A stretch of DNA of 64,000 nt from Sulfurospirillum oryzae (lineage in GTDB: Bacteria; Campylobacterota; Campylobacteria; Campylobacterales; Sulfurospirillaceae). Shown one piece after another: positions 60,820-61,682 of the stretch. The notes below the pieces were generated by a model. It searched no databases and was not told the DNA's origin. It was given only the letters and a program-made list of their open reading frames with translations. The DNA lies in contig NZ_JANZKZ010000001.1 of the NCBI RefSeq assembly GCF_025770725.1, positions 1 to 64,000 on the forward strand. Direction: 5' to 3'. A program made the position numbers and the translations under genes. The stretch's first letter is position 1. Each line of letters opens with the position of its first letter.

Positions 60820-60888
60820 CCTTTATTTAATTTTCTTCCAATACAAACTTTCTATAATGGTGCATAAAAATAAATAAAAGGAATGTGT

Positions 60889-61632
60889 TTGATAACAAAA
60901 ATAGATATGAATTCCCCCGAATTTATAGCAGAATTTGAAAAAACGGAACTCTTTACCGACAAAGTATGTGCGCAATTTGGCTTTGCTTACACGCCATTAG
61001 AAGAAGTAAAAGAGTCCATTCAACAAGGTTTAACACGCAATAAGCTCATTTATGGCAAACGCTACTGCCCTTGTTTTATGGTTATAGGAAATACCCTTGA
61101 AGAGCAAGCGAAGGCTGACAACCGTTTGTGCCCTTGCACGCCAGCTCTTAGCGTAGAAATCCCCCAACATGGTAAATGTCACTGTACGATCTTTTGTACC
61201 CCCGAGCATGCGCATGAACTCGCCCAAGCCGAAAACATGGAAGAAGTCGCCCATACCCATTCAAGAGGTCTCAGCAAAGAAGAGTGCGAAGCCTTGATGA
61301 AAAAAGAGCAGGTTGATGGCAATGAGCTTGAAGCGTTACTCGAAGCGAGAGAGCAAGGCTGTGTGAAATTCAATCTTGTGGATACGAGAGAGTGGATGGA
61401 GTGGATGAGTGAGCGCATCAAGGGAACAGACTTTTTGATCCCAACAACGAGTTTTCACAACGCTCTCTCCCAACTCAATGGCAAAGAGAACACACCTGTC
61501 ATCGTTTACTGTTACAGTGGAAGCCGAAGTGCGTATTGCCAACGTATCTTAAAACACATGGGCTATAAAACGGTGATAAATCTCGAATACGGCATTATGG
61601 CGTATGATGGGGAAACTGAAAGCGGAGAATAA
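60889..61632 (+). CDS. ferredoxin:thioredoxin reductase catalytic domain fused to rhodanese
   Basis: 247 residues from TTG at 60889 (AAAGGA six bases upstream); an ATG at 60883 is too close to the RBS, and the ATG at 60907 is a further option. The N-terminal ~105 residues have the FTR-beta signature YCPCFMV, LCPCTPA, GKCHCTIFC (Cys/His set about 58-100), which holds a [4Fe-4S] cluster and a redox disulfide. The C-terminal ~110 residues are a rhodanese domain with active Cys in IVYCYSGSRSA. FTR reduces thioredoxin-like proteins with ferredoxin electrons; the fusion suggests a persulfide- or disulfide-linked role. Confidence 0.88.
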   Translation: MITKIDMNSPEFIAEFEKTELFTDKVCAQFGFAYTPLEEVKESIQQGLTRNKLIYGKRYCPCFMVIGNTLEEQAKADNRLCPCTPALSVEIPQHGKCHCTIFCTPEHAHELAQAENMEEVAHTHSRGLSKEECEALMKKEQVDGNELEALLEAREQGCVKFNLVDTREWMEWMSERIKGTDFLIPTTSFHNALSQLNGKENTPVIVYCYSGSRSAYCQRILKHMGYKTVINLEYGIMAYDGETESGE

Positions 61633-61641
61633 AAAGAAAAG

Positions 61642-61674
61642 TCCTTTTACATGTAAGGCTTACATGTAAAAGGA
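61642..61674. terminator. bidirectional terminator from two ACATGT palindromes
   Basis: TCCTTTTACATGTAAG (61642-61657) and CTTACATGTAAAAGGA (61659-61674) are exact reverse complements around one base, between the convergent FTR/rhodanese and ychF genes, flanked by A- and T-runs. Confidence 0.85.
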
Positions 61675-61682
61675 TTTAAAAG

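What the first reader, a model, noticed from the sequence alone, without database searches (positions are those of the whole stretch)
60889..61632. Fusion of ferredoxin:thioredoxin reductase with rhodanese
The FTR-beta Cys set (CPC, CPC, CHC, C) and a rhodanese active site (CYSGSRSA) are in one chain. FTR normally reduces thioredoxin with ferredoxin; joined to a sulfur-transfer domain it could reduce persulfides or sulfane sulfur, fitting a sulfur-respiring organism.
Basis: partly seen in the sequence, partly recalled or inferred. Interest (0 to 1): 0.6.

Follow-up and report, generated by a model that had tools for sequence, protein, structure and literature searches.

The report
Ferredoxin-reductase and rhodanese fusion enzyme
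In a Sulfurospirillum-like bacterium one gene encodes an iron-sulfur thiol reductase joined to a sulfur-transfer enzyme, an arrangement that turns out to be conserved across many sulfur-metabolising Campylobacterota and probably lets ferredoxin reduce protein-bound sulfur to sulfide, though this has not been tested.

Summary
The gene at 60889-61632 (+, TTG start, 247 aa) carries a full ferredoxin:thioredoxin/disulfide reductase catalytic domain (PF02943, E 1.9e-34) and a rhodanese domain (PF00581, E 2.9e-14) in one chain; predicted structures place each half in its family. It is not peculiar to this genome: full-length fusions occur in 46 of 200 sampled species of the phylum, in seven family groups, with all active-site cysteines invariant in 28 aligned fusions. 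Label changes on an FTR-domain tree are few (5 against 32 in shuffles), so the fusion is inherited, not repeatedly reassembled.

Best reading: a cytoplasmic ferredoxin-dependent persulfide reductase, in which rhodanese Cys208 carries the persulfide and the FTR [4Fe-4S]/disulfide centre reduces it to sulfide, paralleling NADH-dependent CoADR-rhodanese persulfide reductases. The genome lacks an FTR variable chain, so it belongs with ferredoxin:disulfide reductases, for which glutaredoxin and rubredoxin fusions are known. I found no paper describing the rhodanese fusion, but searched only an open-access library, and did not survey other phyla. Verdict: a real, conserved, apparently undescribed variant of a known kind.

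The parts
60889..61632 (+). FTR-rhodanese fusion gene, 247 aa, TTG start
   Evidence: start codon conserved as TTG/GTG in relatives
60878..60882 (+). AAGGA ribosome-binding site, 6 nt before the TTG start
   Evidence: sequence; AGGA-type motif kept in Sulfurospirillum relatives
60934..61254 (+). ferredoxin:thioredoxin/disulfide reductase catalytic domain (PF02943)
   Evidence: E 1.9e-34, genome search; predicted fold matches only FTR/FDR catalytic chains
61066..61197 (+). Cys codons of CPC (61066-61074), CPC (61129-61137), CHC (61177-61185) and the lineage's extra Cys (61195-61197)
   Evidence: invariant in 28 aligned fusions
61255..61329 (+). linker between the domains, with conserved HSRGL motif, predicted helical
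61330..61605 (+). rhodanese-like domain (PF00581)
   Evidence: E 2.9e-14; fold match to rhodanese domains, VIA Z up to 16.9 over 98 residues
61510..61530 (+). rhodanese active loop CYSGSRS, catalytic Cys208
   Evidence: YCxxGSRS invariant in 28 of 28 aligned fusions
61639..61677 (.). inverted repeat between the convergent fusion and ychF genes, terminator-like; contains TTACATGTAA twice

Best explanation
A soluble cytoplasmic ferredoxin-dependent persulfide (sulfane-sulfur) reductase. The rhodanese half takes sulfane sulfur from a donor (thiosulfate, polysulfide or a small-molecule persulfide) onto Cys208 as a persulfide. Reduced ferredoxin feeds single electrons into the [4Fe-4S] cluster of the FTR half (ligands C60, C81, C83, C97 by alignment), whose neighbouring C62/C99 pair reduces the persulfide, releasing sulfide and freeing Cys208. 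Shown here: both domains, all predicted catalytic residues, their conservation, and long-standing inheritance as one chain. Inferred: cluster, electron donor, sulfur donor, electron transfer between the domains, and product.
For: Both families are well over the curated cut-offs. FTR Cys, the extra Cys and rhodanese YCxxGSRS are invariant in 28 fusions. The FTR model matches only FTR/FDR catalytic chains. The rhodanese half matches rhodanese domains in general, among them those of CoADR-RHD, CoA-persulfide reductase, NADH-dependent persulfide reductase and the persulfide dioxygenase-rhodanese fusion, which are redox modules joined to a rhodanese for persulfide chemistry. Full-length fusion in 46 of 200 sampled species, seven family groups, with few label changes on a tree. 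In Sulfurovum mangrovi the same two domains are adjacent genes 65 bp apart on one strand. A second FTR-like family in the phylum is joined to a degenerate TusA-like (sulfur-carrier) domain (weak).
Against: No conserved neighbour ties the gene to sulfur respiration: it sits beside housekeeping genes (ychF here; rplI and argG in other families). The two domains are not packed confidently in the model (pTM 0.59), so direct electron transfer between the sites is unproven. Nine thioredoxin-family hits exist in the genome, so ordinary thiol targets are available. The TusA-like match is below cut-off.
Confidence: 0.45

Rival explanations
1. An ordinary ferredoxin:disulfide reductase for thioredoxin- or glutaredoxin-like proteins. 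The rhodanese half is a built-in client, sensor or docking part, as glutaredoxin or rubredoxin is in known FDR fusions.
For: Closest solved relatives of the FTR half are FTR/FDR chains, including glutaredoxin/FDR and rubredoxin-type fusions; 9 thioredoxin-family hits in the genome.
Against: The rhodanese catalytic Cys and loop are invariant, which a mere docking part would not need; a TrxB-like thioredoxin reductase (342.4 bits, 1 below cut-off) is already present next to a thioredoxin.
Confidence: 0.22
2. A sulfur-delivery enzyme: the rhodanese hands sulfur to a carrier or to iron-sulfur, molybdopterin or thionucleotide synthesis, and the FTR half supplies the reductive step that frees the product or resolves mixed disulfides.
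For: The rhodanese half scores against MoeZ/MoeB-type adenylyltransferase-rhodanese models (3e-11, far below their cut-offs).
Against: No such partner gene was recognised beside it in the loci examined (neighbours only partly annotated); the weak MoeZ score reflects the shared rhodanese fold.
Confidence: 0.2
3. Two unrelated activities tethered by chance, kept because the fusion is harmless.
For: Both domains also exist as separate genes in the phylum.
Against: Fusion is kept across seven family groups with invariant active sites and few gains or losses; split forms can lie side by side.
Confidence: 0.08

Closest known systems
Ferredoxin:disulfide reductase (FDR) branch of FTR, e.g. Methanosarcina acetivorans FDR (4tpu) and the Desulfotalea psychrophila glutaredoxin/FDR fusion (7pwe)
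   Same: Same catalytic fold (VIA Z 9.7, rmsd 2.7, 93 residues; Z 10.7, rmsd 1.8, 92 residues), same six-Cys plan, no variable chain found in the genome, fused to a second thiol-active domain.
   Different: Partner is a rhodanese rather than glutaredoxin or rubredoxin, and sits C-terminal; extra invariant Cys four residues after CHC.
CoADR-rhodanese / NADH-dependent persulfide reductases (3icr, 3nta, 6pfz, 8a56)
   Same: A thiol reductase module fused to a C-terminal rhodanese with an intact persulfide Cys.
   Different: The reductase is a flavoprotein using NAD(P)H; here it is an iron-sulfur FTR domain presumably using ferredoxin. No homology seen outside the rhodanese.
Persulfide dioxygenase-rhodanese fusion (5ve3)
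   Same: Redox enzyme plus rhodanese in one chain acting on persulfide.
   Different: Oxygen-dependent oxidation, unrelated catalytic domain.
FtrB family double-selenoprotein (NF041072)
   Same: Related FTR domain, nearest NCBIfam model.
   Different: 56 bits against a cut-off of 160; this protein has Cys, not selenocysteine, and a rhodanese tail.

Membership tests
FTR/FDR catalytic chain (PF02943) | profile match over the curated cut-off | tested here: met
   118.3 bits against 22
FTR/FDR catalytic chain (PF02943) | four cluster Cys plus redox-active Cys pair in CPC/CPC/CHC | tested here: met
   all six invariant in 28 fusions; roles assigned by alignment to known FTRs and established knowledge
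FTR/FDR catalytic chain (PF02943) | FTR fold | tested here: met
   domain model pLDDT 91.5; all Foldseek matches under E 0.01 are FTR/FDR chains
FTR/FDR catalytic chain (PF02943) | [4Fe-4S] cluster and ferredoxin-dependent disulfide reduction | not testable with these tools
   needs purified protein
Plant-type heterodimeric FTR | variable (A) chain, PF02941 | tested here: not met
   none in the genome; control genome Synechococcus is positive
Rhodanese (PF00581) | profile match and fold | tested here: met
   53.8 bits against 22.2; VIA Z up to 16.9, rmsd 1.1, 98 residues
Rhodanese (PF00581) | catalytic Cys in a six-residue CxxGxR-type loop | tested here: met
   C208-Y-S-G-S-R; Cys, Gly, Ser, Arg invariant in 28 fusions
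Rhodanese (PF00581) | sulfurtransferase activity | not testable with these tools
   needs an assay
CoADR-rhodanese persulfide reductase | FAD/NAD(P)H disulfide-reductase domain | tested here: not met
   only FeThRed_B and Rhodanese found in the protein
FtrB double-selenoprotein (NF041072) | score over cut-off and in-frame selenocysteine codons | tested here: not met
   56.2 bits against 160; no in-frame TGA

The most novel reading that the evidence does not exclude
A widespread but undescribed class of ferredoxin-dependent persulfide reductases in Campylobacterota, in which an FTR iron-sulfur site reduces a rhodanese-bound persulfide in the same chain; the FTR/sulfur link would extend to the split-gene form and perhaps to the TusA-like fusions seen in relatives.
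Probability: 0.35. Interest if true: 0.65.

Novelty: new variant of a known kind. Interest (0 to 1): 0.42.

Why it matters
Known reductase-rhodanese fusions for persulfides use flavin and NAD(P)H. A ferredoxin-driven iron-sulfur version would give anaerobic sulfur-metabolising Campylobacterota a direct low-potential route from sulfane sulfur to sulfide in the cytoplasm. It would also widen the substrate range of the FTR family beyond disulfides, and it is directly testable on one small soluble protein.

Tried and rejected
(1) ATG start at 60883: rejected, not conserved. (2) Selenocysteine form: no in-frame TGA here; the stand-alone FTRs read have Cys at all six positions. (3) Phage-borne gene: no match in the phage collection. 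(4) Plant-type FTR with variable chain: none. (5) Pathway from gene neighbours: neighbours differ by family and are mostly housekeeping. The Nautiliaceae-like operon genes include DUF7897 and small proteins without a Pfam match. (6) Functional Cys pair C133/C217 (135/219 in the 249-aa reading): alike in 125 of 139 fusions, but on the tree there are too few independent changes to test (p 0.5). (7) Conservation counts from the 139-sequence set are biased because that set was picked by Cys motifs; I rely on the 28-row alignment from profile hits. (8) Whole-chain fold search listed only rhodaneses, so the FTR half was folded alone. (9) Origin from the argG-slot rhodanese: that rhodanese sits outside the fused set on a long branch, so not established. 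(10) Survey outside the phylum: the genome scan found 463 relatives but kept only the best 80, essentially all Campylobacterota; a locus could not be used as search centre.

Full report
What was checked. The ORF at 60883-61632 (+) is a single open frame. Two Pfam families match in tandem: FeThRed_B, residues 18-124 of the 249-aa reading, E 1.9e-34; Rhodanese, 150-241, E 2.9e-14. In nine Sulfurospirillum-group relatives (L114-L122) the same codon is TTG or GTG behind an AGGA-type ribosome site, while the upstream ATG at 60883 is not kept. The protein is then 247 aa, with C60/C62, C81/C83, C97/C99, C103 in the FTR half and C208 in the rhodanese half. It begins MITKIDMNSPEF, with no hydrophobic N-terminal stretch, so it is presumably cytoplasmic.

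Domain identity by structure. The FTR half, folded alone from a 19-sequence alignment, has pLDDT 91.5 and pTM 0.81. Its only PDB matches under E 0.01 are FTR and FDR catalytic chains; VIA Z is 10.7 (rmsd 1.8, 92 residues) to the Desulfotalea glutaredoxin/FDR fusion and 10.2 (2.7, 93 residues) to FTR 1dj7. A sequence profile finds the same set. The rhodanese half of the full model matches many rhodanese domains, Z up to 16.9 over 98 residues, including those of CoADR-RHD, NADH-dependent persulfide reductases, CoA-persulfide reductase and the persulfide dioxygenase-rhodanese fusion. The full model has pTM 0.59, so the mutual placement of the domains is not settled.

How common it is. PF02943 occurs in 164 of 397 sampled species of the phylum. 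With the full-length profile, 46 of 200 sampled species have a complete fusion, in groups f1, f4, f5, f7, f8, f9 and f11 (my count); an f10 member carries it too. Named relatives include Sulfurospirillum, Arcobacter, Malaciobacter, Poseidonibacter, Sulfurovum and Sulfuricurvum; 463 stretches in the GTDB-based collection encode relatives. Many species lack any FTR (233 of 397). Stand-alone FTRs of 103-130 aa also occur, and carry the same extra Cys.

One inherited architecture. On a tree of FTR domains the labels fused / stand-alone / TusA-type need 5 changes, against 31.9 in shuffles. On a rhodanese-domain tree fused and stand-alone need 2, against 4.9 in shuffles. The trees rest on about 120 columns and many forks are open, so I claim few events, not exactly one. 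In f5 (Nautiliaceae-like) and in f10-type genomes a stand-alone FTR lies directly before the fusion. In Sulfurovum mangrovi the two domains are separate genes 65 bp apart; its rhodanese is a divergent one, so this may be separate recruitment rather than a split. In f8 and f9 the fusion sits between rplI and argG; in the window's own genome that slot holds a stand-alone rhodanese instead, and the fusion lies beside ychF.

Residues. In the 28-row alignment of fusions taken from profile hits, all six FTR Cys, the extra Cys, and rhodanese Cys-Gly-Ser-Arg-Ser are invariant; the His of CHC is nearly so. By established knowledge of FTR, the first Cys of CPC-1, both of CPC-2 and the first of CHC hold the cluster, and the second Cys of CPC-1 and of CHC form the redox-active disulfide. 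The rhodanese loop (six residues, CxxGxR) is of the sulfurtransferase type.

Mechanism. Two complete active sites kept together for long favour joint work. The simplest chemistry is persulfide on Cys208 reduced by the ferredoxin-fed FTR centre, giving sulfide. The genome has no variable chain and many Fer4 proteins (47 hits), so a ferredoxin donor is plausible, but which one is unknown. It has a TrxB-like protein next to a thioredoxin, so it does not seem to need this protein for basic thioredoxin reduction. A second FTR-like family with a degenerate TusA-like tail (PF01206 E 0.0096 and 0.079, both below cut-off) is a weak further hint that FTR modules serve sulfur handling here. None of this shows catalysis.

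Known or new. Open-access searches for FTR with rhodanese gave no description of this fusion, only selenoprotein papers and unrelated ones; PMC2398784 and PMC13188914 list a selenocysteine FTR. PMC7278568 describes FTR/FDR as using an active-site [4Fe-4S] cluster. Subscription papers on FTR evolution could not be read, so prior mention cannot be excluded. I file it as a new variant of FDR-type fusions that works, most likely, like a CoADR-rhodanese persulfide reductase without being one.

Noticed in passing
window 8332-61669, 20 places, among them 60770, 60808, 61647, 61660: The palindrome TTACATGTAA occurs 20 times (0.12 expected), in genes and between them, 18 of the 20 between 42027 and 61669. 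The longer TTTTACATGTAAAA is in all 13 sampled genomes of this genus (2-55 copies) and in none of 8 from other families: a genus-specific, highly iterated palindrome.
   Followed up: partly
L224, L228, L229, L230: A second FTR-like family (204-219 aa) with a C-terminal degenerate TusA-like domain lacking the CPxP cysteine.
   Followed up: partly
L083-L086, L135, L147, L153, L159, L194: Stand-alone FTR gene directly upstream of the FTR-rhodanese gene, overlapping or close by, in several lineages; suggests the two work together.
   Followed up: no
L113:4833-5255 (own genome, contig 2): A stand-alone rhodanese of related type sits between rplI and argG, the slot that holds the fusion in other families.
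   Followed up: partly
L214 (G326:C51:73709-74766): Two FTR-rhodanese genes in tandem in one f8 genome.
   Followed up: no
L143, L149: Bins titled Desulfosporosinus and Helicobacter pylori carry Campylobacterota-type fusions at 61% identity; probably mislabelled or mixed bins.
   Followed up: no
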